Below are positions 2,124 to 39,837 of a DNA stretch of 39,855 nucleotides, one piece after another (within the stretch, counting starts at the first letter, position 1; each line of letters begins with the position of its first letter). The DNA comes from Natronohydrobacter sp. (GTDB lineage Bacteria > Pseudomonadota > Alphaproteobacteria > Rhodobacterales > Rhodobacteraceae), in the NCBI GenBank assembly GCA_030603695.1, contig JAUVXF010000025.1:1-39855 (forward strand), read 5' to 3'. Position numbers and translations under genes: made by a program. The notes under the pieces were generated by a model. It was not told where the DNA came from. It ran no database searches and worked only from the letters and a program-made list of their open reading frames with translations.

Positions 2124-2289
2124 GCGCGGAATCAAGGGCGAAGCCCGCCGCGCATCGCTGGGCCGCCCCCGGCCCGGCGATTTGGCAGCACCCTGCGCTT
2201 AGCCTGAGTTTCGCGCGGATTTTGCCGCCATAAAGTGACATAGCTCCCCTGTCGGATCGCCGCACCGCGGCCCAGCGCTGTGCGGCTTG
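2124..2289 (+). repeat. Dispersed structured repeat, copy 1 (about 166 bases)
   Basis: The first of six full copies in the window, all in the same orientation. It starts GCGCGGAATCAAGGGC and ends GTGCGGCTTG. Three inverted repeats are seen in order: GCGCGG with CCGCGC, GGGC with GCCC inside it (loop GAA), and an 11-base-pair stem ATCGCTGGGCC with GGCCCGGCGAT. The 3' half carries the conserved string GCCGCCATAAAGTG and a GC-rich tail. It is followed by a 42-base conserved box (2290-2331). It lies between two converging genes, so a role at transcript ends is possible, but this is inference. Confidence 0.85.
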
Positions 2290-2331
2290 TCTTTCTGCTC
2301 TGCCACTGGAGAAGGTTTAGATATCAGGCGC
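2290..2331 (+). repeat. 42-base linker box after repeat copy 1
   Basis: This begins TCTTTCTGC and ends GATATCAGGCGC. The same box, exactly 42 bases long, follows copy 3 (4077-4118) and copy 4 (11110-11151), so it is part of the repeated unit rather than chance flanking sequence. Confidence 0.75.
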
Positions 2332-2382
2332 ATGGTGACGGGTGGCTTTGTAGGGGCTGCGCATCGTCAGGGCCAATCGCCC

Positions 2383-2549
2383 GCGCGGAATCAAGGCCGC
2401 AGGCCGCCGCGCCTCAAAGGGCCGCCCCCCGGCCCGGCGATTTGGCTGCCGTGGGCGCTTAGCCTGAGTTTCGTTCGGACTTTGCTGCCATAAAGTGACA
2501 TAGCCCCCCGCTCAGATCGCTGCACCGCGGCCCAGCGCTGCGCGGCTTG
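2383..2549 (+). repeat. Dispersed structured repeat, copy 2 (167 bases)
   Basis: The second tandem unit of this locus, 259 bases after copy 1. It belongs to the subtype with CCTCAAAGGG in place of CATCGCTGGG, which shortens the third stem; copy 6 shares this. Its inner hairpin is GGCC-GCA-GGCC, where copies 1, 3, 5 and 6 have GGGC/GCCC. After the tail, 2580-2618 repeats the last about 38 bases once more (AGATCACCGCC to GCGGCTTGG). The remaining sequence to the hemB stop (CCCCTTATGGCGCAACC and following) resembles that before the nadE stop at 11399-11432. Confidence 0.85.
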
Positions 2550-2659
2550 GGGCGGCGGCCCAGAGCATAAGCCCCCGCCCAGATCACCGCCCCTTGGCCT
2601 AGCGCTGCGCGGCTTGGCCGCCGCCCCTTATGGCGCAACCTTCGCGCAGGTGAAGAACA

Positions 2660-3652
2660 CTAGCCTTTCAGCGCTGCCGCCACTTTGGGGGCGAAATAGC
2701 TGAGCACCCCGTCACAGCCCGCCCGCTTGAAAGCCATGAGTGATTCCAGCATCACCTTCTCTTCATTCAGCCAGCCATTTTGCACCGCTGCCATGATCAT
2801 CGCATATTCGCCCGACACCTGATAGGCGAAGGTCGGGCGCTCAAAGCGGTCTTTCACGGCGCGGCAGATATCCAGATAGGGCATGCCGGGTTTGACCATC
2901 ACCATATCGGCCCCCTCTGCCAGATCGCGCGCCACACAGGCCAAAGCCTCTGCCGCATTGGCCGGGTTGATCTGATAGGTGGCCTTGTCCCCCACCAGCC
3001 GGCCAGAGGCCCCCACCGCATCGCGGAATGGCCCGTAAAAGCCGGAGGCAAATTTTGCCGCATAAGACAGGATCGCCACATCGCGATGCCCCTGCGCTTC
3101 CAGCGCCATGCGCAAAGCACCAATGCGCCCATCCATCATGTCAGAGGGGCCAAGAATATCCGCCCCCGCCTCTGCTTGCGCCAGCCCCATTTTCACAAGG
3201 GCCGCGACAGTTTCATCATTCACGATCTCGCCATCAATGACAAAGCCGTCATGGCCGTTGGCATTATAGGGATCCAGCGCGATATCGGTCATCACCATCA
3301 GATCGGGGAATTCCGCTTTCAGCGCGCGAATGGCGCGATTGGTCAGGTTTTCGGGGTTCCAGGCTTCTTCGCACGTCTCTGTGCGCAGGGATTGGTCAGT
3401 ATAGGGAAACAGGCAGATTGCGGGAATGCCAAGCGCATGGGCCTGTTCCGCCGCGGGCAACAGCCTGTCCAACGACAGGCGGTTCACACCGGGAAGCGAG
3501 GGGATAGGCTCGGTTATCCCCTGCCCGTCACGGATGAAGACAGGCCAGATCAGATCGGCCGCGCTCAGCCTGTGCTCCTGCACCATCTCGCGCAGGGCAC
3601 GGGTGCGGCGCAGGCGGCGCATACGGGCGGCAGGGAAGGGGGCAGGGGTCAT
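2660..3652 (-). CDS. hemB: Delta-aminolevulinic acid dehydratase (porphobilinogen synthase)
   Basis: This enzyme joins two 5-aminolevulinate molecules into porphobilinogen, the second common step of haem, chlorophyll and B12 synthesis, in the cytoplasm. The 330-residue protein has both Schiff-base lysines: K200 in SYAAKFASGFYG and K254 in MVMVKPGMPY. The region that holds the zinc cysteines in zinc-dependent enzymes reads here TDIALDPYNANGHDG, with no cysteine, as known for the Rhodobacter and Bradyrhizobium type that does not need active-site zinc. The frame extends 28 codons further upstream, but the ATG at 3652 is preceded by AAAGG at good spacing and gives the expected length. It is a single gene, flanked on both sides by copies of the dispersed repeat. 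Confidence 0.97.
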   Translation of the reverse strand: MTPAPFPAARMRRLRRTRALREMVQEHRLSAADLIWPVFIRDGQGITEPIPSLPGVNRLSLDRLLPAAEQAHALGIPAICLFPYTDQSLRTETCEEAWNPENLTNRAIRALKAEFPDLMVMTDIALDPYNANGHDGFVIDGEIVNDETVAALVKMGLAQAEAGADILGPSDMMDGRIGALRMALEAQGHRDVAILSYAAKFASGFYGPFRDAVGASGRLVGDKATYQINPANAAEALACVARDLAEGADMVMVKPGMPYLDICRAVKDRFERPTFAYQVSGEYAMIMAAVQNGWLNEEKVMLESLMAFKRAGCDGVLSYFAPKVAAALKG

Positions 3653-4188
3653 GTCTTGGGCCTTTCTCGCAGCGTTTCGCACTTGGTGCCATGATCGCCG
3701 GATGAAGGAAAGGGCAAGCTGCGCCTTGGATGACAAAAGCGCAGCCTATGCCAGCGGGGATAACACATGGCCCGTCGCATCACGCTGCTCCTGTCGGCCC
3801 GTGGCTGCACGGCGATTTTACGCGCTCCCTCACAGGGCACGGCGCGGCTAACTGTGGCTTGGTGATGGGCGACGTTGCAGGGGAACACGCGGATTGGCCC
3901 CCTCACAAAGCGCGGAATCAAGGGCGTCAGCCCGCCGCGCATCGCTGGGCCGCCCCCCGGCCCGGCGATTTGGCTGCTGTGGGCGCTTAGCTTGAGCTTC
4001 GTTCGGACTTGGCCGCCATAAAGTGCATAGCCCCCCGGTCAGATCGCCGCCCCGCGGCCCAGCGCTGCGCGGCTTGTCTTTCTGCCGGGTTACTGGAGAA
4101 GGCATGGCTATCAGGCGCCCAGCGCAGCGCGGCTTGGGGCGGCGGCCCAGCACACAGCACATAGCCCCGATGCCAGCGGTGGGCGTCC
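3653..4188. other. Intergenic region between hemB and the AEC transporter
   Basis: Bases 3653-3909 should contain the hemB promoter (minus strand), but no convincing -35/-10 pair could be fixed and no gene was recognised. Bases 3910-4165 hold repeat copy 3, its 42-base linker box, and the tail of a second, internally deleted unit (4118-4150, matching 2531-2562). Confidence 0.6.
3910..4076 (+). repeat. Dispersed structured repeat, copy 3 (167 bases)
   Basis: It begins GCGCGGAATCAAGGGC and ends CGCGGCTTG. The inner hairpin is GGGC-GTCA-GCCC and the long stem pairs ATCGCTGGGCC with GGCCCGGCGAT. The 42-base box follows at 4077-4118, and then only the tail of a second unit, CCCAGCGCAGCGCGGCTTGG. 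The locus therefore seems to have been a tandem pair like those at 2124 and 10944 that lost most of its second unit. Confidence 0.85.
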
Positions 4189-5118
4189 TTACGGCAATAC
4201 CTGCAACCAGACCCAGCCTGTCACGATCACCCCCAATGTGCCAATCAGCACCGAAGATGCGGCCACCCGCTTTGCGCGGCCATAGAGATTGGCGAACACA
4301 TAGGCATTCACCCCCGGCGCCATGGCGGCGGTTATCACGGCAGAGCGCAGCGCCTCTGTCCCAAGGCCAAAGGCGCGCGCCAGCCCGTAGGTGATCAGCG
4401 GATGCACCACCAGCGACAACAGTGCCACATAGCCGATGGTGCGAAAATCCCCCTCCGGGCGGTAGCGATAGAGCACCCCCCCCAGCCCGAACAGCGCCAC
4501 AGGCAGCGCCGCGCGCACCATCATATCCAGCGCCTGATCCACCACACCGGGCATGTGCAGGCCCGTCAGGTTTACCGCAAAGCCCAGTGCGATCCCGATC
4601 ACCAGCGCATTGCGGAACATCGCGGCAAAAACAGCGCGCCCGGTATCACGCATCCGCCCGCCGCGATTGCGGATCATTTCCATTGCGGTAATCCCCACGG
4701 CATAGCAGATGGGCGAATGCACCGCGATAATGGCATAATTCGCGGCCAGCGCATCTGGCCCATAGGCGCGCTCTGTGATTGGCAGGCCCAGCAGCACCGA
4801 ATTGGAGAAGAGCGCCACAAAGCCAATCGCCACGCAATCTTCCCAATCGCGCTTGAACAGCACCCGCGCGCCCCCAAAGCCCAGCGCAAACCCCGCCAGC
4901 GCACCCACATAGAAACTGACCAGCAACCGCCAGTCAAATTCCTGCCCCAGATCCAGCCGCGCGATGGCGGTAAACAGCAGGCAGGGAATGGCGAATGTCT
5001 GGGTAAACCACACCACCCCATCCACCTGATCATCTGAAATCAGCTTGCGCCAGCGCCCGACATAGCCAAAGCCAATGACCAGAAAGACAGGCAATATGAC
5101 ATCAATCAGCGCCTGCAT
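4189..5118 (-). CDS. AEC family permease (auxin efflux carrier superfamily)
   Basis: A 309-residue integral membrane protein with about ten hydrophobic segments, starting MQALIDVILPVFLVIGFGYV, which is the typical first helix of bacterial AEC transporters. The family includes the Mae/Mdc-type malate and malonate carriers; the substrate here cannot be predicted. It contains the internal repeat usual for the fold, with a soluble linker around the middle (MEMIRNRGGRMRDTGRA). Its start is one base after the stop of the MBL hydrolase gene, so it is the last gene of the seven-gene minus-strand run. It ends near the repeat copy 3 locus. Confidence 0.85.
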   Translation of the reverse strand: MQALIDVILPVFLVIGFGYVGRWRKLISDDQVDGVVWFTQTFAIPCLLFTAIARLDLGQEFDWRLLVSFYVGALAGFALGFGGARVLFKRDWEDCVAIGFVALFSNSVLLGLPITERAYGPDALAANYAIIAVHSPICYAVGITAMEMIRNRGGRMRDTGRAVFAAMFRNALVIGIALGFAVNLTGLHMPGVVDQALDMMVRAALPVALFGLGGVLYRYRPEGDFRTIGYVALLSLVVHPLITYGLARAFGLGTEALRSAVITAAMAPGVNAYVFANLYGRAKRVAASSVLIGTLGVIVTGWVWLQVLP

Positions 5119-5119
5119 T

Positions 5120-5917
5120 CTATAGCGCCACTGTCAGCACCATCCCGTCATGGGCGGGGGTGACATGTTCCGGGGTCTCGGCGGCAATTGTGGCATAATC
5201 CAGATCAACATGCATATTGGTCAGCACCGCGCGGGCGGGCTTGGCTTGGGCGATCCAGTCCAGTGTCATATCCAGATGGGCATGGGTGGGATGGGGCTTG
5301 CGGCGCAGCGCATCCACGATCCAGATATCCAGCCCCTGCAACATGGGCCAGCTTTCGGGGTAGATATGCACCACATCGGGGGTATAGGCCAGCCCGCCAA
5401 TGCGAAAGCCCAGCGCATCTATGCTGCCATGGTTCAGCCGCAGCGGGTGCAGCACCAACGGCCCGCCCGCGCCGTCTATGGTGATGGCACCTGTGATCGT
5501 GTGCATTGTCAGGATCGGTGGATAGGGAGAGCCTTCGGGCTGCATGAACGCATAGCCAAAGCGCGCATAAAGCGCCTCTTGTGTCGGGCCATCGGCCCAG
5601 ACGGCCAGCCGCTCGCGGGTGTTGAACACCAATTGGCGCAGATCGTCTATGCCATGCACATGATCGGCATGGGAATGGGTGTAAACCACTGCATCCAGCC
5701 GCCCGATGCCCGCATCCAAAAGCTGCGCGCGCATATCGGGAGAGGTGTCTATCAATACCTGCGTGCGCCCGGTCTCGCCAATCCGCTCCAAAAGCAGCGA
5801 ACAGCGCCGTCGGGTGTTGCGCGGCTCTGCCGGGTCGCAATCGCCCCAATCCCCGCCCAAACGCGGAACCCCCCCCGAAGAGCCGCAGCCCAAGATTGTC
5901 GCGCGCAATTCAGCCAT
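5120..5917 (-). CDS. MBL-fold metallohydrolase (PhnP-like phosphodiesterase)
   Basis: The protein has 265 residues. The metal-binding motif HSHADH is at residues 81-86 (H81, H83, D85, H86), and an N-terminal TILGCGSSGGVPRLGGDWG is characteristic of the PhnP/Lactamase_B_2-like group. Later histidines in LRLNHGS and THAHLDM complete a two-metal site. The family cleaves phosphodiesters (PhnP acts on cyclic phosphoribosyl phosphate), but no phn genes are nearby, so the physiological substrate is open. Its ATG overlaps the tatD stop by one base (TGATG), which indicates translational coupling. In Rhodobacterales this gene commonly follows tatD, and the conserved pair supports a general metabolite-repair or nucleotide role (inference). 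Confidence 0.85.
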   Translation of the reverse strand: MAELRATILGCGSSGGVPRLGGDWGDCDPAEPRNTRRRCSLLLERIGETGRTQVLIDTSPDMRAQLLDAGIGRLDAVVYTHSHADHVHGIDDLRQLVFNTRERLAVWADGPTQEALYARFGYAFMQPEGSPYPPILTMHTITGAITIDGAGGPLVLHPLRLNHGSIDALGFRIGGLAYTPDVVHIYPESWPMLQGLDIWIVDALRRKPHPTHAHLDMTLDWIAQAKPARAVLTNMHVDLDYATIAAETPEHVTPAHDGMVLTVAL

Positions 5918-6702
5918 CAGGCGGCCTTCCAGAACAGACGGTCAAAATTCGCGCTGGTCTGCGCGGCGAATTCTGGCACATCCAACCCAAAGAGTTCCGC
6001 GCCCACCTGCGCGGTATGCACTGTATAGGCCGGTTCATTGCGCTTGCCCCGGTAAGGGGGCGGGGCCAGATAGGGCGCGTCGGTTTCCAGCAAAATCCGC
6101 TCTAAGGGCGCGGCGCGGAAAATCTCGCGCAGCGCATCGCTTTTGGGAAAGGCGGCAATGCCTGACATGGACAGATAAAACCCCAGATCCAGCGCCGTGC
6201 GCGCCAGTTCCGCACTGGAGGAGAAACAATGCATCACGCAACTATACCCGCCCGCGCGGTGTTCTTCGGTCAGGATACGCGCCATATCCTCATCAGCAAC
6301 GCGGGCATGGATGATCAGCGGCAAGCGTGACTGGCGCGCGGCCTCGATATGCAGGCGCAGGCTGTCTTGCTGGGCGGCTTTGCTCTCGGCGGTATAATGG
6401 TAATCAAGGCCCGTTTCGCCAATGCCCACCATTTTGGGATGGGCGGCAAGGGCCAGCAACTCTGCCACGCTGGCCATGGGTTCGGCGGCGGCATTCATCG
6501 GGTGGGTTCCGGCGGCAAAGAAAACGCCCTCATGGGCCTCTGCAATCGCCTGCACGCGCGCGGCCTCGCGCAGCTTGGTGCAGATCGTGACCATCCGTGT
6601 CACCCCGGCGGCGCGGGCGCGTGCGATCACGGCGTCCAACTCTTCCGAAAGCTGGGGGAAATCAAGATGGCAATGGCTGTCAACGATCTGGGGCAGGGGC
6701 AT
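5917..6702 (-). CDS. tatD: TatD-family metal-dependent deoxyribonuclease
   Basis: A 261-residue TIM-barrel hydrolase of the TatD/YcfH type. All metal ligands are visible: H10 and H12 in VDSHCHLDF, E96 in GIGETGLDYHY, H132 in LIIHAR, H158 in VMHCFSS and D208 in LLETDAPYL. Family members are Mg-dependent 3'-5' exonucleases linked to DNA repair and fragment clearance, or D-aminoacyl-tRNA deacylase-like enzymes. The ATG is 18 bases after the holB stop, in the same order holB-tatD found in many proteobacteria (tmk-holB-tatD/ycfH in E. coli). That context favours YcfH rather than the TatABC-linked TatD. Confidence 0.93.
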   Translation of the reverse strand: MPLPQIVDSHCHLDFPQLSEELDAVIARARAAGVTRMVTICTKLREAARVQAIAEAHEGVFFAAGTHPMNAAAEPMASVAELLALAAHPKMVGIGETGLDYHYTAESKAAQQDSLRLHIEAARQSRLPLIIHARVADEDMARILTEEHRAGGYSCVMHCFSSSAELARTALDLGFYLSMSGIAAFPKSDALREIFRAAPLERILLETDAPYLAPPPYRGKRNEPAYTVHTAQVGAELFGLDVPEFAAQTSANFDRLFWKAA

Positions 6703-6720
6703 GCGGTCTCCGGCGGGGGT

Positions 6721-8477: not shown

Positions 8478-8479
8478 GC

Positions 8480-9664: not shown

Positions 9665-9697
9665 GGGGTTTCCTTCTCTCTCGCTCTTGTGCCGGGG

Positions 9698-10639: not shown

Positions 10640-10943
10640 TCTGCCTCTCTATCCGCGTTGCGCAGGGGCTGATCTGGTGCCAGCCTTCTTTTGCGCGCGA
10701 CGGTTTCTTTTTGTGATTTAAACCCAATTCGATGGGCAAGGTATACACCAAATCCAATGCTTCGACAGCCCAAAATATGCAAGCCAAGACCAGCCCGCAG
10801 CCTGTGACAAACCCGTGAGCGGGGGGCACAATCGCGGCTTGGACATATCTCCGTGGCGCGGCTTGGTGCGGGGGCGCTGCACCCGGCATAAGCTGTCTAT
10901 GGGCAGGTTTGAATCAGTTGCAGGCATTGGCATAACGCGCAAA

Positions 10944-11109
10944 GCGCGGAACAAAGGCCGAAGGCCGCCGCGCATCGCCGGGCCGCCCCCCGGCACGGCG
11001 ATTTGGCTGCATCCTGCGCTTAGCCTGAGTTTCGTTCGGACATTGCCGCCATAAAGCGCTTAGCTATTCGGATGGATCGCCGCCCCGCGGCCCGACGCTG
11101 CGCGGCTTG
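10944..11109 (+). repeat. Dispersed structured repeat, copy 4 (166 bases)
   Basis: It starts GCGCGGAACAAAGGCC and ends CGCGGCTTG. The inner hairpin is GGCC-GAA-GGCC, the compensated form also seen in copy 2. The long stem is ATCGCCGGGCC with GGCACGGCGAT (one mismatch). The 42-base box follows at 11110-11151, and the next unit begins 251 bases after this one. Confidence 0.85.
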
Positions 11110-11194
11110 TTTTTCTGCCCGGTCGCAGGAGCAGGGATAGATATCAGGCGCGGCTTTCCACGGGGGCACATCGCTTGCCCCTCTCGCGCGCCTT

Positions 11195-11361
11195 GCGCGG
11201 AATCAAGGGCTTTAGCCCGCCGCGCATCGCCGGGCCGCCCCCCGGCACAGCGATTTGGCTGCAACCTGCGCTTAGCTTCAGTTTCGTTCGGATTTGGCCG
11301 CCATAAAGTGCATAGCTATTCTGCCGGCTCGCCGCACCGCGGCCCAGCGCTGCGCGGCTTG
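11195..11361 (+). repeat. Dispersed structured repeat, copy 5 (167 bases)
   Basis: Second unit of the tandem pair upstream of the SPOR operon. The inner hairpin is GGGC-TTTA-GCCC and the long stem is ATCGCCGGGCC with GGCACAGCGAT. No 42-base box follows it, as with copy 2, so the box sits between units. Confidence 0.85.
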
Positions 11362-11439
11362 CGACAGCGGCGCGGCGCGGCGACAGTTCCCCCGCCAAAG
11401 CTGCCCCCTTCATGGCGGAACCGTCGCGCAGAAGGGGGC

Positions 11440-13098
11440 CTAGCTGCGGTCGCGCCAGCGATTGACCAGCGGATAGCGCCGATCCAGCCAGAAGGCGCGG
11501 TCTGTCAGGCGCGGGCCGGGGGCGGATTGATAGCGTTTCCATTCTGATATCATCACCAGATGCTCTACCCGTTCCACCACATCGCGCGCGAAACCCTGCG
11601 CCACCAGATCACTGACAGAGCAATCTTTCTCCACCAGTGCTTCCAGTATCGCATCCAGCACCGGGTAGGGTGGCAGACTGTCATCATCGCGCTGGCCTTC
11701 GCGCAATTCGGCCGAGGGGGGTTTTTCGATGATGCGCGGCGGGATCACCTCGCCCGAAGGCCCGCCCATCCAGTCGCGGTGGTTGGCATTGCGCCAGTGG
11801 CATATCTCGAACACGCGGGTTTTATAGAGATCTTTGATCGGGTTATAGCCGCCATTCATATCGCCATAGATGGTGGCATAGCCCACAGCCATTTCGGATT
11901 TATTGCCGGTTGTCAGCAACAGCGCGCCGGTTTTGTTGGAAATGGCCATCAGGATCGTACCGCGAATGCGTGATTGCAGGTTTTCTTCGGTCACATCCGG
12001 CGCAAGACCGGTGAAGAGCGGCGCAAGCGCGCTGTCAAACGCGGCGCGCGGGCCTTCGATGCTGATCTCGTCCAAGCAGCAGCCCAGCCGCGCGGCCAGA
12101 TCGGCGGCATCTGCCAAGCTGTCGGCCGAGGTGTATTCCGAGGGCAGCATCACGCAATGCACATTCTGTGGCCCGATGGCATCTGCCGCAATGACGGCAA
12201 CAAGGGCAGAATCCACCCCGCCCGACAGGCCCAGCACCACGCGCGAAAAGCCCGATTTGCGCAGGTAATCACCAAGGCCCAGAGCCATGGTGTGATAATC
12301 CTGCTCTGCGGTGTCGGGCAGCAGGGCGCGGGGGCCCGTCTGTGCGCGCCAGCCCTCTGCGCCATGGGTGAAATCCACATGCGCCAGCGCTTCTTGATGG
12401 CTGGGCAGTTGCACTGCCAGTTGCCCGCCGGGATTGAGCACGAAACTGGCCCCGTCAAAGACCTGATCATCCTGCCCGCCCACAAGATTGAGATAGACAA
12501 GCGGCAAGCCCGTTTCCACCACGCGCGCCACCATATGGCCCATCCGCGTCTCATAGCGCCCCCGCGCATAGGGAGAGCCATTTGGCACAAGCAGCAATTC
12601 CGCCCCCGATTCCGCCTGCGCTTCTGCCACATCCTCGAACCAGGCATCTTCGCAAATGGGCGTGCCAATGCGGATTGGCCCCATGCGGTAGGGGCCGGAG
12701 ATGCTGTCAGAGGCAAACAGCCGCTTTTCATCAAAAACCGAAGTGTTGGGCAGGTGGAATTTGCGGATCACCGCCGCGATCTGCCCGCCCGACAGCACCG
12801 CCCAGCAATTATACAGCGCGCCGTTTTCCACCAGCGGCACGCCAATTCCAAGGCTTGGCCCTTGCGCGCAGTCCTGCGCCAAGGCGTCCAAGGCCGCGCG
12901 CAGATCGGCCTGAAAGGCAGGGCGCCAGACAAGATCCTGGGTTTGGTAGCCAGAGAGGAACATTTCGGGCAGGGCCAGCATGTCTGCCCCTGCCTCTGCC
13001 GCGCTGCACCATGCCGCGCGCGCTTTGGCGGCATTGCCTGCGATATCGCCAACAGTGGGGTTTAGCTGCGCAAGGGTCAGGCGGAAATGGTCGGGCAT
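11440..13098 (-). CDS. nadE: Glutamine-dependent NAD+ synthase
   Basis: The two-domain, 552-residue enzyme makes NAD from deamido-NAD, using glutamine as ammonia donor. The N-terminal nitrilase-type glutaminase domain shows the catalytic triad E45 (LALPEMF), K113 (IRKFHLPN) and C149 (PICEDAWF). The C-terminal synthetase domain has the PP-loop SGGVDS at residues 292-297, then TTGNKSE and PPSAELR. Length and domain order fit the family with nothing missing. The start ATG follows AGAGAGCC-like sequence in a divergent region shared with the MORN protein gene, in which the parS-like site lies. The 3' end is next to repeat copy 5. Confidence 0.97.
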   Translation of the reverse strand: MPDHFRLTLAQLNPTVGDIAGNAAKARAAWCSAAEAGADMLALPEMFLSGYQTQDLVWRPAFQADLRAALDALAQDCAQGPSLGIGVPLVENGALYNCWAVLSGGQIAAVIRKFHLPNTSVFDEKRLFASDSISGPYRMGPIRIGTPICEDAWFEDVAEAQAESGAELLLVPNGSPYARGRYETRMGHMVARVVETGLPLVYLNLVGGQDDQVFDGASFVLNPGGQLAVQLPSHQEALAHVDFTHGAEGWRAQTGPRALLPDTAEQDYHTMALGLGDYLRKSGFSRVVLGLSGGVDSALVAVIAADAIGPQNVHCVMLPSEYTSADSLADAADLAARLGCCLDEISIEGPRAAFDSALAPLFTGLAPDVTEENLQSRIRGTILMAISNKTGALLLTTGNKSEMAVGYATIYGDMNGGYNPIKDLYKTRVFEICHWRNANHRDWMGGPSGEVIPPRIIEKPPSAELREGQRDDDSLPPYPVLDAILEALVEKDCSVSDLVAQGFARDVVERVEHLVMISEWKRYQSAPGPRLTDRAFWLDRRYPLVNRWRDRS

Positions 13099-13531: not shown

Positions 13532-14947
13532 ATGATTTCTGGCAGATCGCTTGGGGTGCTGGCTGTCGTGATGGGGCTTGGCCAAACTGTCTTTGCCCAG
13601 ACGGCCCTTGCCCAGACCGATGGCGTTCTGACCCGCCAATATGAAGATGGCGGGATTTATGAAGGCGAGTTCCGCGATGGCCTTCAGCATGGGCAGGGCA
13701 CATACCGCCTGCCCAACGGGTTTGAATATACAGGCGCGTGGGTTGAGGGCGAGATCAGCGGGCAGGGCGTGGCGCGCTACCCTTCGGGCGCAGTGTATGA
13801 GGGGGAGTTTCTGGCCGGGCGTCCGCAGGGAATGGGCAAGATGATCTTTGCCGATGGTTCCAGCTATGAGGGCAACTGGATTGAGGGGCGGATTGAGGGC
13901 GAAGGGACACGGGTTTTCGCCAATGACTCTGTCTATATTGGCAGTTTTCGCGATGGCCAGCCCCATGGCCAAGGTGTGCTGACGCGCCCGGATGGCTATG
14001 AGTATGACGGGGACTGGGTGGAGGGCCTGCGCGAGGGGCAAGGGCGCATCACCTATCCTGATGGCAGTGTCTTTGAAGGCACGCTGGTTGGCGATCAGCG
14101 CGAGGGGCGCGGTGTGCTGACCTCGCCGGAAGGGCTGCGCTATGAGGGCGACTGGCTGGCAGGCGATCTGCATGGCGAGGGGGTGTTGCGCACCCCCAAT
14201 GGCGATGTTCACACCGGCTCTTTCCGCCAAGGGCTGCGCCATGGCCCGGCGCGGGTAGAGCAGGCCGACGGGCTGGTCTTTGAGGGCAGCTTTGTGGACG
14301 ATCTGCGCGAGGGGCCGGGGCGTCTGAGCGGGCCGGGCGGCTATCTGTATGAGGGCGCATGGCTTGGCGGCCAGATTGAGGGTGAGGGCCGGTTGGAACA
14401 GCCTGACGGGTCTGTCTATGTGGGCATGTTCCGTGCGGGCCTGCCGCATGGCACAGGGGCGATCACCTATGCCGATGGGGCCAGCTATGAGGGCGAATGG
14501 CGCGATGGGCAGTTTCATGGGCAGGGCCGCGCGGTGTTTGCCGATGGGGCAATCTATGAGGGCGGCTTTGTGCAGGGCCTGTCCGAGGGCGAGGGGGTGA
14601 TGACCTTTGCTGATGGGCGCGTTTATACCGGCGCGTTCATGGGGGGCGAATTGCATGGCATGGGCGAGATGGTCTTTCCCGATGGCTCTGTCTATCGCGG
14701 CGCGTTCCGCGAAAGTGCGCGCGAGGGCGTGGGCCGGATCGAACTGGCAGACGGGTTTGTCTATGAGGGCGACTGGCTGGGGGGCCAGATCACCGGGCGG
14801 GGGATTGCCACCTATGCCACGGGCGATGTCTATGAGGGCGATTTCCTGAATGGCCAGCGCAGCGGACAGGGCGTGTTGCGCTATGCCTCTGGCGAGGAAT
14901 TGGCGGGCGATTGGGAAGATGGCCGCCTGATCGCGCGCGACGACTAG
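13532..14947 (+). CDS. Exported MORN-repeat protein
   Basis: The 471-residue protein has a signal peptide ([20 protein letters not shown] and on to about AQT, residue 29), after which nearly the whole mature chain is MORN repeats. About 19 units of 23 residues can be counted by the Y/F-x-G-x-W/F core ([24 protein letters not shown] through GDVYEGDF), the last (GEELAGDW) degenerate. MORN repeats form elongated beta-hairpin stacks and serve as scaffolds or lipid-contact surfaces. The cargo or partner here is unknown; periplasmic or surface location is inferred from the signal peptide. The ATG at 13532 is preferred over the TTG three codons earlier because GGGGG lies at normal spacing and the signal peptide is complete. 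It is followed by the DUF2256 gene after 13 bases. Confidence 0.88.
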
Positions 14948-15122: not shown

Positions 15123-15162
15123 GCATGAGTGGGGCCGCGCTGGCGGACAGGGCGGGCGGAAT

Positions 15163-15939
15163 GGCCCAAACCCCGCGCGCGCGGGTGTGGTGGGCGGAAG
15201 CGACCCAGAATTACACGACCGGAACAACCCAAGCCCCGCGCGCGCGGGTGGTGGGCGGCGACAGCGGAACATTGTGAACAATGGCGCGGCCAAGCCCTGC
15301 GCGCGCGGGTGGTGGCTGCGGGGGTGGCCCGGTTGCGCTGGTTTGCAGGTGGCGGGCCGAGAGGTTGGGCGCGTGGCCCAAGTTGTCTGCGCGCGCTGGT
15401 GCTGGCTGCGGGGGTGGCCCTGTTGTGCTGGCTTTGGGGTTGTGTGCCGGGAGGTTGGACGGAATGGCCCAAACCCCGCGCGCGCGGGTGGTGGGCGGAA
15501 GCGACCCAGAATTACACGACCGGAACAACCCAAACCCCGCGCGCGCGGGTGGTGGGCGGCAACAGCGGAACATTGCAAATAATGGCGCGGCCAAGCCCTG
15601 CGCACGCGGGTGGTGGCTGCGGGGGTGGCCCTGTTGTGCTGGCTTTGGGGTTGTGGGTCGGGAGGTTGGACGGAATGGCCCAAACCCCGCGCGCGGGTGG
15701 TGGACGCAAAAGACCACGCCGACAACGTGCAGTTTCGGCCAAGCCCTGCGCGCGCTGGTGGTGGCTGCGGGGGGGGCTCGGTTGCGCTGGTTTGCAGGTG
15801 GCGGGCCGAGAGGTTGGGCGCGTGGCCCAAGTTGTCTGCGCGCGCTGGTAATGGCTGCGGGGGTGGCCCTGTTGTGCTGGCTTTGGGGTTGTGTGCCGGT
15901 AGCTTGGGCGAGGCTGCCCAAGCCCTTCGGGCGCGCGTG
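15163..15939 (+). repeat. GC-palindrome repeat array with CRISPR-like spacing, no cas genes
   Basis: Eleven units share a 29-base core that begins GGCCCAAACCCCGCGCGCGC and ends GGGTGGTGG, with the perfect palindrome CCCGCGCGCGCGGG in its middle. Units end at 15193, 15254, 15315, 15405, 15494, 15555, 15616, 15703, 15764, 15854 and 15939. Units 4, 9, 10 and 11 are the most diverged. Five intervals (15194-15225, 15255-15286, 15495-15526, 15556-15587, 15704-15735) are exactly 32 bases, giving the 61-base period of type I-E CRISPR arrays. The other intervals are 60-62 bases and homologous to each other. The first and third 32-mers are identical, the second and fourth nearly so, and the fifth is unique. 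The last unit abuts the stop codon of the AraC-type gene. Long open frames exist on both strands, but the 61-base period breaks frame, so no gene is called. It could be a decayed CRISPR array or a palindromic satellite. Confidence 0.75.
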
Positions 15940-16788
15940 TTAGCTGAGGGTGCGGGAGGTGTTTGGCCCGGCTGTGCTGGCTTTGCGGTAGCTGGAGGGC
16001 GGCTGCCCGATATGCTGGGTAAAGGCGCGTGAGAAATAGCCCGGTGTGGAAAAGCCCAGATTGCGCGCGATATCCTGCACGGGAATTCTGGTGTCTTGCA
16101 GCAGGCGGCGGGCCTCGTACAGGCGGCGTTCCTGCATCAGCGCAAGGGCCGTGCGCCCACAACTGGCGCGACAGGCGCGCGTGAGGTGGGTGGGGGTGAC
16201 GCCCAAGGCGGTGGCGTAATCGGTGACATTGAGGGAAGAGCCGAATTCGCGTTCCAGCAGGGTGGCATAGCGCGCGGTAAGCCGTTCATTTGCGTTGAGA
16301 ACAGGGGTGGTGCGGGCGCTGTCATCGGCGCGCTCGGAGCGGTGGCGTTCCAGCCAGATGGCCAAAAGGCCCAGTTGCAGATAGGCGGCTTTTTCAGATT
16401 TGGCGCGCGGGCTGTCAATCTCGCGCTGCACGCAATCCACCAGATGCGAGACTTCGGCATGTTGCACGGCATCGCGCAGCCGCAGGTGCAAGGGCTGATC
16501 GGGCAATTCCAGCCCGTGGCGCGTGCCAAAATAGATGGCGCTGCCCTGCACGCGGGTCATGGCCTGTAGCCCGTAGAGCGTGCCTGCCGGGATGAAGATG
16601 GCGTTATGGGGGTGAAAGCCGCGCGTGCTGCCGCCCAGATTGATGCGCCCTTGCCCGTGGGTGAACCACAAAAGCAACGGCTCGCGCAGGGCGCGCATGG
16701 TTTCCAACTGCCATTTCGGCGCCGCAGCCAGTTTGCTGATGGGCACAATGCGCAGGCGTGTTGGCGCGTCGGGTATTGTCTTCATCAT
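15940..16788 (-). CDS. AraC-family transcriptional regulator
   Basis: The protein has 282 residues. The N-terminal half is a cupin-like sensor (GQGRINLGGSTRGFHPHNAI and IFIPAGTLYGLQ). The C-terminal about 100 residues hold the two helix-turn-helix units of the AraC family: the first around LNVTDYATALGVTPTHLTRAC, the second at IPVQDIARNLGFSTPGYFSRAF, ending with GQPPSSYR. The start ATG is preceded by GGGGGGA. The ligand and targets are unknown. The upstream 121-base gap contains a direct repeat and a hairpin, which may be its own operator. Its C-terminal codons run up to the last unit of the palindrome array. Confidence 0.9.
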   Translation of the reverse strand: MMKTIPDAPTRLRIVPISKLAAAPKWQLETMRALREPLLLWFTHGQGRINLGGSTRGFHPHNAIFIPAGTLYGLQAMTRVQGSAIYFGTRHGLELPDQPLHLRLRDAVQHAEVSHLVDCVQREIDSPRAKSEKAAYLQLGLLAIWLERHRSERADDSARTTPVLNANERLTARYATLLEREFGSSLNVTDYATALGVTPTHLTRACRASCGRTALALMQERRLYEARRLLQDTRIPVQDIARNLGFSTPGYFSRAFTQHIGQPPSSYRKASTAGPNTSRTLS

Positions 16789-33044: not shown

Positions 33045-33131
33045 CCCCTGCGCGGATTCGCGCGCTTTGCCTTTTGCCAAAAACCCTGCAATAGTCCGGC
33101 CAAATCACGACATAGAGAGGTTGATTTCTCA

Positions 33132-33470: not shown

Positions 33471-33474
33471 GGCC

Positions 33475-34830: not shown

Positions 34831-35071
34831 AGTATTCGCCTTGATCAAGTTGCTTTCGGTGTCCATTTGCGGTCTTGCCGGATAAGCGCGTTGGCCAGTC
34901 CGCCCATCTTTCGCAGTCATGCGACCCACTCTATCCTCTGTGGCCGCAAGTCCTTTTGTACAAAACCCTGCTCCAGCTTTTGCGCGAGATGCCCTAACCC
35001 CCGCTTTGGCTTTCATCTTGGCCCAAATATCCTGCGGGGGTGAATTGGCGCATTGTCTTTGTGTTGTGTCG

Positions 35072-35113
35072 CAATTTCGAACCGAAAAAGTCTATCAACT
35101 TTTTCTGAAATTG
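35072..35113. other. AT-rich imperfect hairpin, function unknown
   Basis: CAATTTC (35072-35078) pairs with GAAATTG (35107-35113), and inside it GAAAAAGT (35084-35091) pairs with ACTTTTTC (35098-35105), leaving a 5/1 internal loop and a six-base loop CTATCA. The region is AT-rich within GC-rich DNA. It could be a terminator for either converging gene, or part of a small RNA. Confidence 0.5.
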
Positions 35114-35126
35114 CTCCTGCGCCAAG

Positions 35127-35147
35127 AGGGGGCCGCACAGGCCCCCT
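35127..35147 (-). terminator. GC hairpin, candidate terminator of aroB
   Basis: AGGGGGCC (35127-35134) pairs with GGCCCCCT (35140-35147) over a five-base loop, 27 bases beyond the aroB stop. No T run follows, so it is only a candidate. It could also serve the converging dehydrogenase gene. Confidence 0.45.
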
Positions 35148-35173
35148 AGCCCCCCCTGCCACAGGGCGCAGCG

Positions 35174-36295
35174 TCAGGGCCTGTGTGCCAGTTTCTCGGC
35201 CAGAAGCGCCAAAAGCAGATCCCCCGGCACATCATCGCACACAAAGGCCGCGCCGATGTCGCGGGCGAGGATGAAGCGCAAGCGCCCGTCCTGCACTTTT
35301 TTATCCTGCGCCATCAGGCCCACCAGCGCCTCGGCGCTGGGCAGATCGCCTGCAATATCGGCCAGATCGGTGGCCATGCCCATGGCGCGCAGATGCGCGC
35401 GCACGCGGCTGGGGGTTTCCTGTGCGCAAAGCCCCATGCGGGCCGACAGTTCAAAGGCCAAGGCGCAGCCAATCGCCACCCCTTCGCCATGCAACAGCCT
35501 GTCGCCATAGCCCGTGGCCGCTTCCAGCGCGTGGCAGAAGGTATGGCCCAGATTGAGAAGCGCGCGCTCGCCCTGTTCGGTTTCATCGCGTGCCACGATG
35601 CCCGCCTTCATCTCGACAGAGCGGCGCACGGCATATTGGCGCAAATCCTTTGCGCCCCCCGCCATGGCCGGGCCATGCGCTTCCAGCCACTGAAAAAACG
35701 CAGCATCCCCCAGCAGCCCGTATTTCACCACCTCGCCATAGCCTGCCAGAAAATCGCGCGGGGGCAGGCTGTCGAGCAAATCTATATCGGCCAGCACAAG
35801 GCTGGGTTGGTGGAACGCGCCCACCAGATTTTTGCCATGGCGGGTGTTGATCCCGGTCTTGCCGCCGACAGAGCTGTCGACCTGCGCCAGAAGCGTGCTT
35901 GGCACCTGCACAAATCGCACCCCCCGGCGCAGCACCGAGGCCGCAAACCCGCCCAGATCGCCGATCACGCCGCCGCCCAAGGCCAGCACCATGTCGCGCC
36001 GTTCCACCCGCGCATCCAGCAGCCATTCCACGGCCTCGCGCAAGCCCTCCCAGCCCTTGGTGCCCTCGCCGGGGGCGAGGGCATGGGCGGTGCTGGCAAT
36101 GCCCTTCGCGCCCAAGCCTGCTTCCAGCGCGGCCAGATGCAGGGCGGCCACGCGGCTTTCGCTGAGCACGGCCACGCGCGGGCGGGCCAGAAGCGGCGCA
36201 ATCAGCGCGCCTGCCTGTGCCAGCAGCCCCTGGCCGATCACCACATCATAGGCGCGCGCGCCAAGGGCCACATGCACGCGGTCAATCTGGGTCAT
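35174..36295 (-). CDS. aroB: 3-dehydroquinate synthase
   Basis: AroB makes 3-dehydroquinate from DAHP, the second shikimate step, using NAD and a metal ion. The 373-residue protein has the NAD motif LALGGGVIGDLGGFAAS, VQVPSTLLAQVDSSVGGKT, GEVVKYGLL (metal Glu), NLGHTFCHALEAATGY and LLHGEGVAIG (metal His residues). The frame is open upstream, but the ATG at 36295, overlapping the aroK stop by four bases (ATGA), gives the expected protein MTQIDRVHVALGARAYDVVI. The aroK-aroB pair is common in proteobacteria. Confidence 0.96.
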   Translation of the reverse strand: MTQIDRVHVALGARAYDVVIGQGLLAQAGALIAPLLARPRVAVLSESRVAALHLAALEAGLGAKGIASTAHALAPGEGTKGWEGLREAVEWLLDARVERRDMVLALGGGVIGDLGGFAASVLRRGVRFVQVPSTLLAQVDSSVGGKTGINTRHGKNLVGAFHQPSLVLADIDLLDSLPPRDFLAGYGEVVKYGLLGDAAFFQWLEAHGPAMAGGAKDLRQYAVRRSVEMKAGIVARDETEQGERALLNLGHTFCHALEAATGYGDRLLHGEGVAIGCALAFELSARMGLCAQETPSRVRAHLRAMGMATDLADIAGDLPSAEALVGLMAQDKKVQDGRLRFILARDIGAAFVCDDVPGDLLLALLAEKLAHRP

Positions 36296-36837
36296 TTTCT
36301 GGCTCCTTGCAGGATATCGGGGCGCTCTGCCAACGCGTTCAGCACGGCCCCTGCCATATCGCTGATGGCGTAGGATGGCCGCGCTTCCACCACAAGATCG
36401 GCTTTGGCGTAATCGGGTTCGCGCCGCGCCAGAAGATCGGCCAGGGTGGCGCGCGGGTTTTCGGTTTGCAGCAAGGGTCGGGTGGTTTTCTGGCGCACGC
36501 GCGCCCACAGCAGATCAAGATCGGCCTTCAGCCATACCGCGCAGCCCAAATCCGAGATCAGCGCGCGGGTATCGGCGTTCAGATAGGCCCCGCCCCCGAC
36601 CGACAGGATGGCCGGTTTGCCGCGCAACAGCCGCCCGATCACTTCGGCCTCGCGGGCGCGAAAGAACGCCTCGCCATCGCGGGCGAAGATTTCGGCAATG
36701 CTCATCGCGGCGGCGGCGACGATTTCTTCATCCGAATCAAGGAAGGGGGCCGCAAGCATGCGCGCCAATTCCTTGCCCACGGCCGTCTTGCCCGCGCCCA
36801 TCATGCCCACAAGAACAACTGTCTTGAGCAATTTCAT
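36292..36837 (-). CDS. aroK: Shikimate kinase
   Basis: This enzyme phosphorylates shikimate at the 3-OH with ATP. The 181-residue protein begins MKLLKTVVLVGMMGAGKTAV; the P-loop is G11-T18. DSDEEIVAAAAM supplies the shikimate-binding Asp, EAFFRARE the Arg, and SVGGGAYLN the GGG motif. An RPLLQTENP lid segment is present. It is first in the aroK-aroB unit and divergent from the small membrane gene at 36983, with a 145-base promoter region between. Confidence 0.95.
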   Translation of the reverse strand: MKLLKTVVLVGMMGAGKTAVGKELARMLAAPFLDSDEEIVAAAAMSIAEIFARDGEAFFRAREAEVIGRLLRGKPAILSVGGGAYLNADTRALISDLGCAVWLKADLDLLWARVRQKTTRPLLQTENPRATLADLLARREPDYAKADLVVEARPSYAISDMAGAVLNALAERPDILQGARK

Positions 36838-36982
36838 CTTTGCGCGTGCTCCTGTCCCGTCTTGTCTATCAAGTTTTCGTGGCCTGTCTGTCTAATGTCG
36901 TGATAATGCGGCATTGTCGAACGGAAAACCCCCAAAGCTGATTTGCGTTCAAGAGGGGCTGGGTTCAGAAAGGCAGGCAGCG

Positions 36983-37117
36983 ATGCGTTATATCTTCCGA
37001 CTTGTTCTTGTTTTGGTGTTTTTGGCTGCGATTGCTGTCGTGGCATATGCCTATATTGGCGATCTGACAGCGCAGCGCAGCCCGGTGGAAGCCCCTGTGG
37101 TGCTGGAGGTGAATTGA
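36983..37117 (+). CDS. 44-residue single-pass membrane protein
   Basis: MRYIFRLVLVLVFLAAIAVV starts one transmembrane helix (about residues 5-26), followed by a short polar tail ending VVLEVN. No family was recognised with certainty. The frame is open 23 codons further upstream, but the ATG at 36983 places the helix at the N-terminus. Its stop overlaps the TTG start of the next gene by four bases (TTGA), which implies coupling. Such a short gene before a larger exported protein and xerD may be a conserved Rhodobacterales unit (inference). Confidence 0.7.
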   Translation: MRYIFRLVLVLVFLAAIAVVAYAYIGDLTAQRSPVEAPVVLEVN

Positions 37118-38700
37118 CCGCGCAGCAGGGTTTTTTGCGCCCCTTTGGGCTGTTGGCCTGTCTGGCCTTTGCCCCTATGGGTGGAGGCGCAGTTGCACAG
37201 GGCAGCGATGGTGCGCCGTTGAGTGCGATTGACTGGCTGCAACAGGCGCTGGAGGCCCCTGTGCCGCAAAGCCCTGTGCCTGATGGCTTTGGGCAGGGGG
37301 ATGGTGCCGGAGTGGTGCTGCCGGGCGCGTATTTTGAAAGCATCCAGAGCGCGCCTCTGGAGGGGCTGGGGCCAGAGGCCGCGGGCCTGTTTCGCGCCGA
37401 ACGTGTAGGCCTGCCGCGCGATTTATGGGCGGGCAGCACGCGTTCAGAGGTGATTGCCGCTGTATCTGCCATGCCGGAAGATGGCCTGCCAAGTGCCACG
37501 CGCCTTGGCTTGCGCCTGCTTCTGGCCGAATTTTTACCCCCCCGCGATGACATGCCCGAAAGCCGTGATGCGCTGCTCTTGGCGCGGCTGGACAAGCTGG
37601 TGTCGCTTGGCGCTTTGGAACAGGCGGGCCAGTTGATAGAAGGGCTTGCCGATAAAACCGCAGGCATGACGGCGCGCGCCTTTGATATTGCGCTGTTGCT
37701 GGGCGAGGAAGATCGCGCCTGTGCGCAGATGCTGGGCCAGATTGCCGCCAGCCATGGCCATGCCGCGCAGATTTTCTGCATGGCGCGCACGGGTGATTGG
37801 CAGGCGGCCTATGCCGGGCTTCGGGTGGCGCAAAGCCTTGGTCTGCTAACCCCGGCAGAGGGCGGGATGCTGGCGCGCTTTCTGGAGGAAGAGGAAAGCG
37901 ATTTCGCCCCGCCGCCACCGCAAGACATGACGCCGCTTGCCTGGCGGATCATGGAGGCGTTGGGCGATCCTGTCACAACGGCCGGGCTGCCCATTGCCTA
38001 TGCCCATGCCGATTTGCGCGGCACATCGGGCTGGCGCGCGCAGCTGGAGGCCGCAGAGCGGCTGACGCGCGCGGGCGTTTTGCAGCCAAACCGCCTGTAT
38101 GGGTTATATACCGCCCGCCGCGCTGCGGCCTCTGGCGGGTTGTGGGAGCGCGTGCGCGTGGTGCAGATGTTGGAGCGCGCGATTGACACCGGCGATGCCG
38201 CTGCCGCAAGTGCCGCGCTGGTGCAGGCATGGCCGCTCTTTGCGGCGGTGGAACTGGAAGTGCCCTTGGCCGAGATTGCAGCGCCATTGCTGCTGGATAT
38301 GCCGCTGACAGAAGCGGCGCGCGATGTGTTCTGGAAGGTCTTGATCCTTGCGCAAGACAGCCCGGAGCGCGCGGCCGCGCTGGCCCCAGACAACGCGGTT
38401 GGGCGGCTGGTCATGGCGCTGGCCAAGGGGGAGCCCCTGCCGCAGATATCCGCGCCGCCCATGGCCGCCGCAATTGTGGCGGGCTATGGCACGCCAGTTT
38501 TGCCCGGCTTGGTGCAAGAGCAGATCGCGCAGGGGGCGCAGGGGGCAGTCTTGCTGGAGGTGCTGGGGCTGTTGTCTCAGGCAGGGGTGGGCGATGTGCA
38601 GGCCGCAACAGAGGCATTGCACCGCCTGCGCGCCTTGGGACTGGAGATGCTGGCGCGGCAGGTTGCGATAGAACTGCTGCTGTTGGAGCGGCGGGGATGA
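37114..38700 (+). CDS. Exported alanine-rich protein of unknown function
   Basis: The 528-residue protein probably starts with TTG 37114, coupled to the small membrane gene by overlap, with GGAGG four bases upstream. An ATG inside the signal peptide (37176) would remove most of it. The signal peptide is TAQQGFLRPFGLLACLAFAP with cleavage near AVAQ-GS (residue 28). The mature part is rich in Ala, Leu and Gly, mostly helical in appearance, with repeated amphipathic segments such as GLRVAQSLGLLTPAEGGMLA that resemble TPR-like helical hairpins, though no clear TPR consensus was found. No catalytic motif was seen. It overlaps the recombinase gene by four bases. The product is probably periplasmic. 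Confidence 0.8.
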   Translation: MTAQQGFLRPFGLLACLAFAPMGGGAVAQGSDGAPLSAIDWLQQALEAPVPQSPVPDGFGQGDGAGVVLPGAYFESIQSAPLEGLGPEAAGLFRAERVGLPRDLWAGSTRSEVIAAVSAMPEDGLPSATRLGLRLLLAEFLPPRDDMPESRDALLLARLDKLVSLGALEQAGQLIEGLADKTAGMTARAFDIALLLGEEDRACAQMLGQIAASHGHAAQIFCMARTGDWQAAYAGLRVAQSLGLLTPAEGGMLARFLEEEESDFAPPPPQDMTPLAWRIMEALGDPVTTAGLPIAYAHADLRGTSGWRAQLEAAERLTRAGVLQPNRLYGLYTARRAAASGGLWERVRVVQMLERAIDTGDAAAASAALVQAWPLFAAVELEVPLAEIAAPLLLDMPLTEAARDVFWKVLILAQDSPERAAALAPDNAVGRLVMALAKGEPLPQISAPPMAAAIVAGYGTPVLPGLVQEQIAQGAQGAVLLEVLGLLSQAGVGDVQAATEALHRLRALGLEMLARQVAIELLLLERRG

Positions 38701-39635
38701 CGGCGCCTGTGGCCTCTGTAACCTGGATTTCCGCGTTTCTGGAAGCGCAGGCCGCAGAGCAGGGGGCCGCGCGCAATACGCAACTGGCCTATGGGCGCGA
38801 TTTGCAGGATTTCGCGCAATGGTGCGCGGGGCAGGGTCTGGACTTTGCCAGTTTGGGCCGCGCAGAGATAGAGCGCTATCTTATCGGCTGCGAGGCGCAG
38901 GGGCTGGCCAAAGCGACCCGCGCACGCAGGCTGGCCTCGCTGCGCCAGTTGTTCCGCTTTGCCTATGCCGAGGGCTGGCGCAAGGATGATCCCGCCAGCC
39001 GCATTTCCGGCCCCGGCCGCGCGCGCAAACTGCCTGTCACCCTAAGCCATGAGGATGTGGATGCCTTGTTGCGCGCCGCCCCGGAAACAGGGCGCAGCGC
39101 GGCTGACAGGCTGCGCAATGCCTGCCTGTTGGAACTGCTCTATGCCACAGGGTTGCGGGCGAGCGAGTTGGTCAGCCTGCCCGTTGCGGCGGTGCGGGGC
39201 AATCCCGACATGATACTGGTGCGCGGCAAGGGCAATAAAGAGCGGATGGTTCCGCTCTCTGCGCCCGCGCGCGCGGCGCTGGCGCGCTGGTTGGTGCAGT
39301 GGGACAGCCAAGCCGCGCAGTTGCGCGCCGCGCGCAAGCCGGAGCCGCGCTTTCTGTTCCCCTCATCCGGGCGCGAGGGCCATCTCAGCCGGGTGGGGTT
39401 TTATCTGATCCTGAAAGAGATTGCGTTGAAAGCCGGTCTTGATCCGGCGCGCATCAGCCCGCATGTGTTGCGCCATGCCTTTGCCACGCATCTGCTGGCA
39501 GGCGGGGCCGATCTGCGCGCGATCCAGACACTTTTGGGCCATGCCGATATTTCCACCACTGAAATTTATACCCATGTCCTGCAAGAGCGCCTGCGCGCTT
39601 TGGTGCTGGCGCATCATCCTTTGGCGAAGGGCTGA
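38697..39635 (+). CDS. xerD: Tyrosine recombinase XerD (chromosome dimer resolution)
   Basis: XerD acts with XerC and FtsK at the dif site to resolve chromosome dimers. The 312-residue protein has the N-terminal SAM-like DNA-binding domain (residues 8-100) and the C-terminal catalytic domain with all six active-site residues: R154 (ATGLRASEL), K178 (RGKGNKERMV), H256 and R259 (SPHVLRHAF), H282 (LLGHADIS) and Y291 (TEIYTHV). It is too standard and too well placed among housekeeping genes to suggest a phage integrase. XerC versus XerD cannot be fully separated by eye; the start (ATGA overlap) and the TGLRASELVSL form favour XerD. Repeat copy 6 starts 36 bases after its stop. Confidence 0.9.
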   Translation: MTAPVASVTWISAFLEAQAAEQGAARNTQLAYGRDLQDFAQWCAGQGLDFASLGRAEIERYLIGCEAQGLAKATRARRLASLRQLFRFAYAEGWRKDDPASRISGPGRARKLPVTLSHEDVDALLRAAPETGRSAADRLRNACLLELLYATGLRASELVSLPVAAVRGNPDMILVRGKGNKERMVPLSAPARAALARWLVQWDSQAAQLRAARKPEPRFLFPSSGREGHLSRVGFYLILKEIALKAGLDPARISPHVLRHAFATHLLAGGADLRAIQTLLGHADISTTEIYTHVLQERLRALVLAHHPLAKG

Positions 39636-39670
39636 GGCGGGGTATTTGAGCGATCAGGGGACATAGCCCC

Positions 39671-39837
39671 GCGCGGAATCAAGGGCGTTAGCCCGCCGCG
39701 CCTCAAAGGGCCGCCCCCTCGGCCCGGCGATTTGGCTGCCGTGGGCGCATAGCTTCAGTTTCGTTCGGACTTTGCCGCCATAAAGCGCTTAGCCGCCCGG
39801 CCGGATCGCCGCCCCGCGGCCCAGCGCTGCGCGGCTT
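39671..39837 (+). repeat. Dispersed structured repeat, copy 6 (167 bases)
   Basis: Sixth full copy, in the same orientation as the rest, beginning GCGCGGAATCAAGGGC. The inner hairpin is GGGC-GTTA-GCCC. It belongs with copy 2 by the CCTCAAAGGG variant and has one extra base (CCCCCTCGGCC). The window ends 18 bases after it, so whether a linker box and a further copy follow cannot be seen. Confidence 0.85.

What the first reader, a model, noticed from the sequence alone, without database searches (positions are those of the whole stretch)
2124..39837. Family of six about 166-base structured intergenic repeats, all in one orientation
Copies lie at 2124-2289, 2383-2549, 3910-4076, 10944-11109, 11195-11361 and 39671-39837. 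They share long blocks (GCGCGGAATCAAGG; GGCCGCCCCC to GGCGATTTGGC; TTCGTTCGGA; GCCGCCATAAAG; CCAGCGCTGCGCGGCTT). All are intergenic, next to the 3' end of at least one gene, and each could fold as nested hairpins. The length is well above classical REP or BIME units. The family could be a non-autonomous mobile element, a transcript-end element or a non-coding RNA family. I do not know a described family that it matches.
Basis: partly seen in the sequence, partly recalled or inferred. Interest (0 to 1): 0.82.

Follow-up and report, generated by a model that had tools for sequence, protein, structure and literature searches.

The report
Swapping palindromic repeats at gene ends
The six repeats belong to a large and apparently undescribed family of hairpin-forming DNA elements at gene ends in Rhodobacteraceae bacteria, and comparison of strains shows that the centre of an element can be swapped or inverted while its surroundings stay the same.

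Summary
Observation confirmed: all six copies lie where stated. The 166-nt unit is only a core. Isolated copies have outer arms that are inverted repeats of each other, and clustered copies are joined by a ~90-nt linker. The host genome has at least 76 cores (capped). By a strict exact signature, 44 of 295 sampled genomes of the family match, this one included, and 0 of 285 class genomes outside the family. Copies sit at gene 3' ends: 20 of 39 loci lie between converging genes, against 13 of 154 other gaps.

Pairing is conserved by compensatory change. Mismatches are rare, but A-C exceeds G-U 232 to 117 and raw folding is lower on the - strand in 24 of 33 loci, so a - strand RNA role stays open.

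At hemB, 29 of 29 fetched relatives' loci lack it. In one species, three of three sites examined carry different cores in opposite orientation between 96-97% identical flanks, and a plasmid inversion has both breakpoints in elements.

Best reading: a non-autonomous palindromic repeat remodelled in place by recombination. How it reaches new sites is unknown.

The parts
2044..2110 (+). remnant of a further core (model positions 15-88)
   Evidence: nhmmer 19.7 bits, E = 1e-4
2124..2289 (+). core copy 1 (array 1)
2290..2382 (+). array linker between cores 1 and 2; similar linkers lie beside cores elsewhere in the genome
2383..2549 (+). core copy 2 (array 1)
2562..2616 (+). 3' fragment of a further core (model positions 116-170)
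   Evidence: (D4)
2628..2663 (+). right outer arm of array 1, ending in CTAG (2660-2663) that contains the stop codon of the hemB-type gene (TAG on the - strand)
   Evidence: ALAD family
3910..4076 (+). core copy 3
4077..4140 (+). linker-type sequence and a 3'-core-like fragment after copy 3
   Evidence: (D11)
10901..10943 (+). left outer arm of array 2 (GGGCAGGTTTG...)
10944..11109 (+). core copy 4 (array 2)
11110..11194 (+). array linker between cores 4 and 5
11195..11361 (+). core copy 5 (array 2)
11396..11443 (+). right outer arm of array 2 (CAAAGCTGCCC...), complementary by eye to the start of 10901-10943, ending in CTAG (11440-11443) that contains the stop codon of the NAD synthase gene
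   Evidence: NAD_synthase family
39657..39670 (+). left inner arm of copy 6
39671..39837 (+). core copy 6; the contig ends 18 nt later

Best explanation
A family of non-autonomous palindromic DNA repeats that, as far as searched, is confined to Rhodobacteraceae. Anatomy (shown): a ~166-nt core with a 5' hairpin (GCGCGG-AATCAA-[hairpin]-CCGCGC) and segments A B ... B' A', in which A can pair with B, A with A' and B with B'; outer arms that are inverted repeats of each other; in some loci tandem cores joined by a ~90-nt linker. Location (shown): gene 3' ends, above all between converging genes, with TAG stops over-represented beside them. History (shown by comparison): sites are filled in some species and empty in others; some are shared with the nearest species; at a filled site the core can be inverted, differ in number, or be of another subfamily while flanks and outer arms stay; two elements in opposite orientation are the breakpoints of a plasmid inversion. 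Mechanism (inferred): the DNA hairpin is a recombination hotspot; breaks or stalled forks at it are repaired from other copies, which swaps, flips and multiplies cores. The family is tolerated because it sits behind genes, where the hairpin may also act as a two-way terminator. How a copy first reaches an empty site (a transposase acting in trans, or copying into an existing terminator palindrome) is not shown.
For: Copy number and range: at least 76 cores here and 30 of 37 genomes of the genus; 44 of 295 genomes of the family by exact signature, reversed-pattern control 0 in all; 0 of 285 outside the family. Pairing: 97.9% of cells paired, 38 double-change cells against a shuffled mean of 7.7, no shuffle of 500 reaches the covariation score; 39-153, 40-152, 41-151 and 42-150 are Watson-Crick in 173-175 of 180 cores. 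Palindrome kept as DNA: at seven strongly covarying pairs 205 alternative Watson-Crick cells but 5 G-U and 19 A-C. Location: 20 of 39 between converging genes against 13 of 154, p = 1.2e-8; TAG stops 26 of 47 against 36 of 217 and CTAG 15 of 47 against 14 of 217, p = 8.6e-6 for CTAG. Gain or loss: hemB 29 of 29 fetched relatives' loci without a core, G026 with the same gene order and almost no gap; NAD synthase site 1 of 29 with a core. Remodelling: against G027 an inverted core, one core against three, and a core next to core fragments where G027 has one core; in P. pseudonitzschiae different subfamilies in opposite orientation at the same sites, the sister species holding one of the two types; inversion breakpoints in elements.
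Against: No element was seen to enter an empty site between near-identical genomes, and no target duplication was seen. Over 53 pair positions A-C cells exceed G-U cells 232 to 117 (related cores are not independent, and the helices overlap), which is what a functional - strand RNA would give; the direction differs by stem (A-B has 49 G-U to 20 A-C). Raw folding energy is lower on the - strand in 24 of 33 loci. In 33 of 39 loci the gene on the 3' side of the element reads towards it, so its mRNA would carry that - strand. The measure 'further pair types' does not beat the shuffles (70 of 500). Conserved loop motifs (GAATC, ATAAA) would fit RNA or protein binding.
Confidence: 0.58

Rival explanations
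1. A classical MITE moved by an unidentified insertion-sequence transposase: arms as terminal inverted repeats, CTAG or TAG as target. It differs from the best reading only in how copies reach new sites.
For: Outer ends often read ...CACTAG and adjacent stops are enriched for TAG and CTAG. IS630 targets CTAG with TA duplication (recalled). Patchy copy number.
Against: Few loci carry CTAG at both ends, and no target duplication was seen. Among 26 hits to the 5' half alone (6 at the edge of the fetched stretch) none had a separate 3' half 0.3-6 kb downstream. No Y1 transposase in this genome; other transposase families were not searched.
Confidence: 0.3
2. A functional RNA element of 3' UTRs (two-way terminator, stabiliser or regulatory RNA), most likely as the - strand, kept by selection.
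For: Gene-end location; A-C over G-U 232 to 117; lower raw energy of the - strand in 24 of 33 loci; 33 of 39 loci would carry the - strand in a facing gene's mRNA; G026 has a perfect small hairpin between the converging stops where this genome has the element.
Against: Composition-corrected z does not differ by strand (p = 0.38); covarying pairs change with few mismatches of either kind; cores invert at a site; sites are not conserved between species.
Confidence: 0.27
3. A methylation-linked chromosomal site like the Caulobacter CIR repeats: the bulged GAATC is a GANTC (CcrM) site.
For: GANTC at that place in 48 of 54 own cores and 17 of 25 cores of the genus; five own cores read GAGTC, which keeps GANTC.
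Against: 8 of 25 genus cores lack it. The 162 of 180 is biased, because many loci were fetched by a pattern that contains GAATC. CIR sequences could not be compared.
Confidence: 0.1

Closest known systems
YPAL / RU-2 elements of Yersinia (about 168 bp)
   Same: Similar size, intergenic, inverted repeats internal, not A+T-rich, targets at or next to dyad symmetry, empty and filled sites (passages of PMC2229807 seen).
   Different: Other bacteria; YPAL makes 3-26 bp target duplications (same passage), none seen here; outer arms, linker arrays and core exchange are not in the passages seen.
BOX elements of pneumococcus
   Same: Modular: end modules around a variable number of tandem middle modules; over-represented between convergent genes (passages of PMC3049150 seen).
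   Different: Other host and modules; BOX is proposed to be moved by ISSpn2; here the repeated module is the long palindromic core, which can invert and be exchanged.
CIR repeats of Caulobacter and Brucella
   Same: Alphaproteobacterial intergenic repeats with hairpins and GANTC (section 7 of PMC2229807 read).
   Different: About 110 bp, two arms and a linker, GANTC at a terminal loop; here GAATC is in a side bulge of a longer element; no sequence comparison was possible.
REP / REPIN with RAYT transposase
   Same: High-copy extragenic palindromes.
   Different: 20-40 bp units (abstract of PMC3733652 in listing); no Y1 transposase in this genome.

Membership tests
Bacterial MITE (broad sense) | short, non-coding, multicopy, palindromic | tested here: met
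Bacterial MITE (broad sense) | terminal inverted repeats matching an IS of the host | tested here: inconclusive
   arms are inverted repeats by eye; no IS ends were compared; only PF01797 searched
Bacterial MITE (broad sense) | target-site duplication | tested here: inconclusive
   none seen, but no near-identical empty site was available
REP/REPIN-RAYT | Y1 (RAYT) transposase in the genome | tested here: not met
   0 matches to PF01797 in G000; the control rang in 5 of 14 genomes
Known Rfam RNA family | match to a covariance model | tested here: not met
   0 in the window at gathering; 0 up to E = 10 for one element with flanks
CIR repeats | conserved GANTC site in the repeat | tested here: inconclusive
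   48 of 54 own cores, but only 17 of 25 genus cores
CIR repeats | sequence similarity to the CIR consensus | not testable with these tools
   no CIR sequence at hand
BOX-like modular repeat | end parts around a variable number of tandem modules | tested here: met
   arrays of up to 4 cores; one core against three at one site

The most novel reading that the evidence does not exclude
The family spreads and renews itself without a transposase of its own: the DNA hairpin is cut or stalls the fork, and repair copies the core of another element into it, so that any palindrome (an older element, or a terminator hairpin between converging genes) is a landing pad. It would be a self-copying palindrome driven by host repair.
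Probability: 0.22. Interest if true: 0.82.

Novelty: new variant of a known kind. Interest (0 to 1): 0.62.

Why it matters
Several Rhodobacteraceae genomes hold 70 or more of these cores, yet eight literature searches showed no description. Exchange of cores at fixed sites within one species gives a direct way to test how long palindromes are kept and spread in bacteria. In practice, two contig ends of this genome lie at elements, and elements are the breakpoints of a plasmid inversion.

Tried and rejected
Coding repeat: not supported. Known RNA family: no match. RAYT/IS200 system: no Y1 transposase in this genome. Autonomous parent: among 26 hits to the 5' half alone, 6 at the edge of the fetched stretch, no separate 3' half 0.3-6 kb downstream; ORFs between halves were not examined. 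Orientation: strands balanced 29 to 26; tandem gene pairs 13 to 5, p = 0.10. Phage origin: no match in 50,697 phage records; one viral-collection contig holds a core between a terminase and a portal gene. GANTC as a universal feature: first count biased, recounted. Exact target from the hemB and NAD synthase loci: flanks too diverged. Duplex energies of arms do not discriminate in such G+C-rich DNA and are not used. One search failed on a MAFFT option; one search repeated it. One search lists 109 candidates with 40 scored and missed copies found later; one search is capped at 76.
Full report
OBSERVATION. The six copies are at the stated places. Aligned core to core they have 89% mean column identity. 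The signature GCGCGGAATCAAGGN{3,8}GSCCGCCGCGC occurs five times in the window and in none of 100 shuffles. Partial cores lie at 2044-2110 and 2562-2616. Neighbouring genes by Pfam: ABC transporter, delta-aminolevulinic acid dehydratase (hemB type), Mem_trans transporter, SPOR protein, NAD synthase, and a tyrosine recombinase (XerD-like by recall).

EXTENT IN THE GENOME. The window is the whole contig C29 of G000 (2.95 Mb, 40 contigs). Blastn gave 48 near full-length copies. In the fetched regions a profile of the six copies gave 54 full cores at 41 loci; a later profile with three more regions gave 59 at 44. A covariance model gave 76, its scoring limit. The exact signature occurs 29 times forward, 26 reverse.

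ANATOMY. Flanks of isolated copies are conserved and inverted repeats of each other by eye: left ...GGGCAGGTTTGAGCGG..GGGGAC..., right ...GTCCCC..CCCC..AAAGCTGCCCCTCATGGCGGAACC.... Cores in arrays are joined by a ~90-nt linker; a search with one linker gave 16 matches, most beside cores and four weak ones elsewhere. In two loci (C11, C39) the core lies inverted between arms of the usual orientation.

STRUCTURE. 180 cores were analysed (54 own, 126 others; 3 of 183 dropped as duplicates or with N; many of the others were fetched by a pattern that fixes positions 3-32). The strongest covarying pairs fall on A with A', B with B' and A with B. In a 29-row alignment of the genus 97.9% of cells are paired, with 38 double-change cells (shuffled mean 7.7); no shuffle of 500 reaches the covariation score, sliding the partner destroys it, and only 'further pair types' is not beyond the shuffles (70 of 500). 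The AGCGCCC-type cores of Pseudosulfitobacter change the 5' stem GCGCGG/CCGCGC to GCCCGG/CCGGGC. At seven covarying pairs there are 205 alternative Watson-Crick cells, 5 G-U and 19 A-C. Over 53 pair positions (9401 cells) there are 117 G-U and 232 A-C. Over 33 isolated loci z does not differ by strand (p = 0.38), but raw energy is lower on the - strand in 24 (p = 0.004). I read rare mismatches as a DNA palindrome; the A-C excess and raw energy leave room for a - strand RNA.

LOCATION. Genes were called by my own codon-usage script. Of 41 loci 39 have two called neighbours: 20 between converging genes, 13 and 5 in tandem pairs, 1 divergent. Other gaps in the same regions, by subtraction: 13 of 154 convergent, p = 1.2e-8. 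Stops facing an element within 130 nt are TAG in 26 of 47 (36 of 217 elsewhere) and CTAG in 15 of 47 (14 of 217).

DISTRIBUTION. The genus is probably Roseinatronobacter in the GTDB sense, inferred from a contig length shared by G009 and NZ_MEHT01000001.1. Family: 44 of 295 genomes, this one included; G186 has 88 matches and G132 72, most have none. Outside the family: 0 of 285; the covariance model hit 2 of 142 class genomes, both of the family. Plasmids: 94 records, 91 Pseudosulfitobacter. Phages: none.

GAIN AND LOSS. This genome has cores on both sides of hemB. Of 36 other genomes searched 34 had hemB; the 29 loci fetched hold no core, and nine of them keep the Mem_trans gene beside hemB. 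G026 has the same three-gene order with almost no gaps and a small perfect hairpin between the converging stops. At the NAD synthase gene 1 of 29 fetched loci (G017) has a core; 24 of the 29 show both neighbouring genes. Against G027, the nearest species by these searches, two sites are shared in place, one has the core inverted, one has one core where this genome has three, and one has a single core where this genome has a core fragment followed by a whole core and a 3' core end. Which state is older is not shown there.

STRAIN LEVEL. In P. pseudonitzschiae each of three sites examined is polymorphic: flanks of 96-97% identity carry an ATCGC-type core or an AGCGCCC-type core in the other orientation, exchanged with roughly 20-25 nt of inner arm. 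The sister species DSM 107133 has the AGCGCCC type at one of the sites, so the ATCGC core there is probably newer. Strain SC33-90 keeps a remnant of the AGCGCCC type beside its ATCGC core. Two plasmids compared by flank mapping (H46, SC1-27) have six element sites: two collinear with exchanged cores, two collinear and alike, two at the breakpoints of a large inversion; no empty site.

LITERATURE. Searches returned no description of this family; four exact 14-mers of the core occur in no held paper. Seen: passages of PMC2229807 and its section 7, passages of PMC3049150 and PMC3733652; the other papers only as listings.

JUDGEMENT. A new variant of a known kind: multicopy palindromic intergenic repeats. 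What sets it apart is the multi-way pairing and the exchange and inversion of cores at fixed sites. Transposition to new sites, termination, transcription and any host partner are untested.

Noticed in passing
window 15149-15989: A separate block of degenerate tandem repeats (CCCAAACCCCGCGCGCGCGGGTGGTGGGC-like units), apparently unrelated to the element.
   Followed up: no
window 13556-14947: A MORN-repeat protein (Pfam PF02493).
   Followed up: partly
window 39855 and G000:C2:4-67: The window is a whole contig that ends 18 nt after core 6, and contig C2 begins with a core fragment: the assembly breaks at elements.
   Followed up: partly
L205:8516-8679: A viral-collection contig carries a core between a terminase and a portal gene, perhaps a prophage or gene transfer agent.
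   Followed up: partly
L305-L308: Two P. pseudonitzschiae plasmids differ by a large inversion with both breakpoints in elements.
   Followed up: yes
L036:3498-3688 and L251:9929-10119: Some cores carry a ~25-nt TCATGCC...GGCATGA hairpin in the A/B loop, shared with the nearest species.
   Followed up: no
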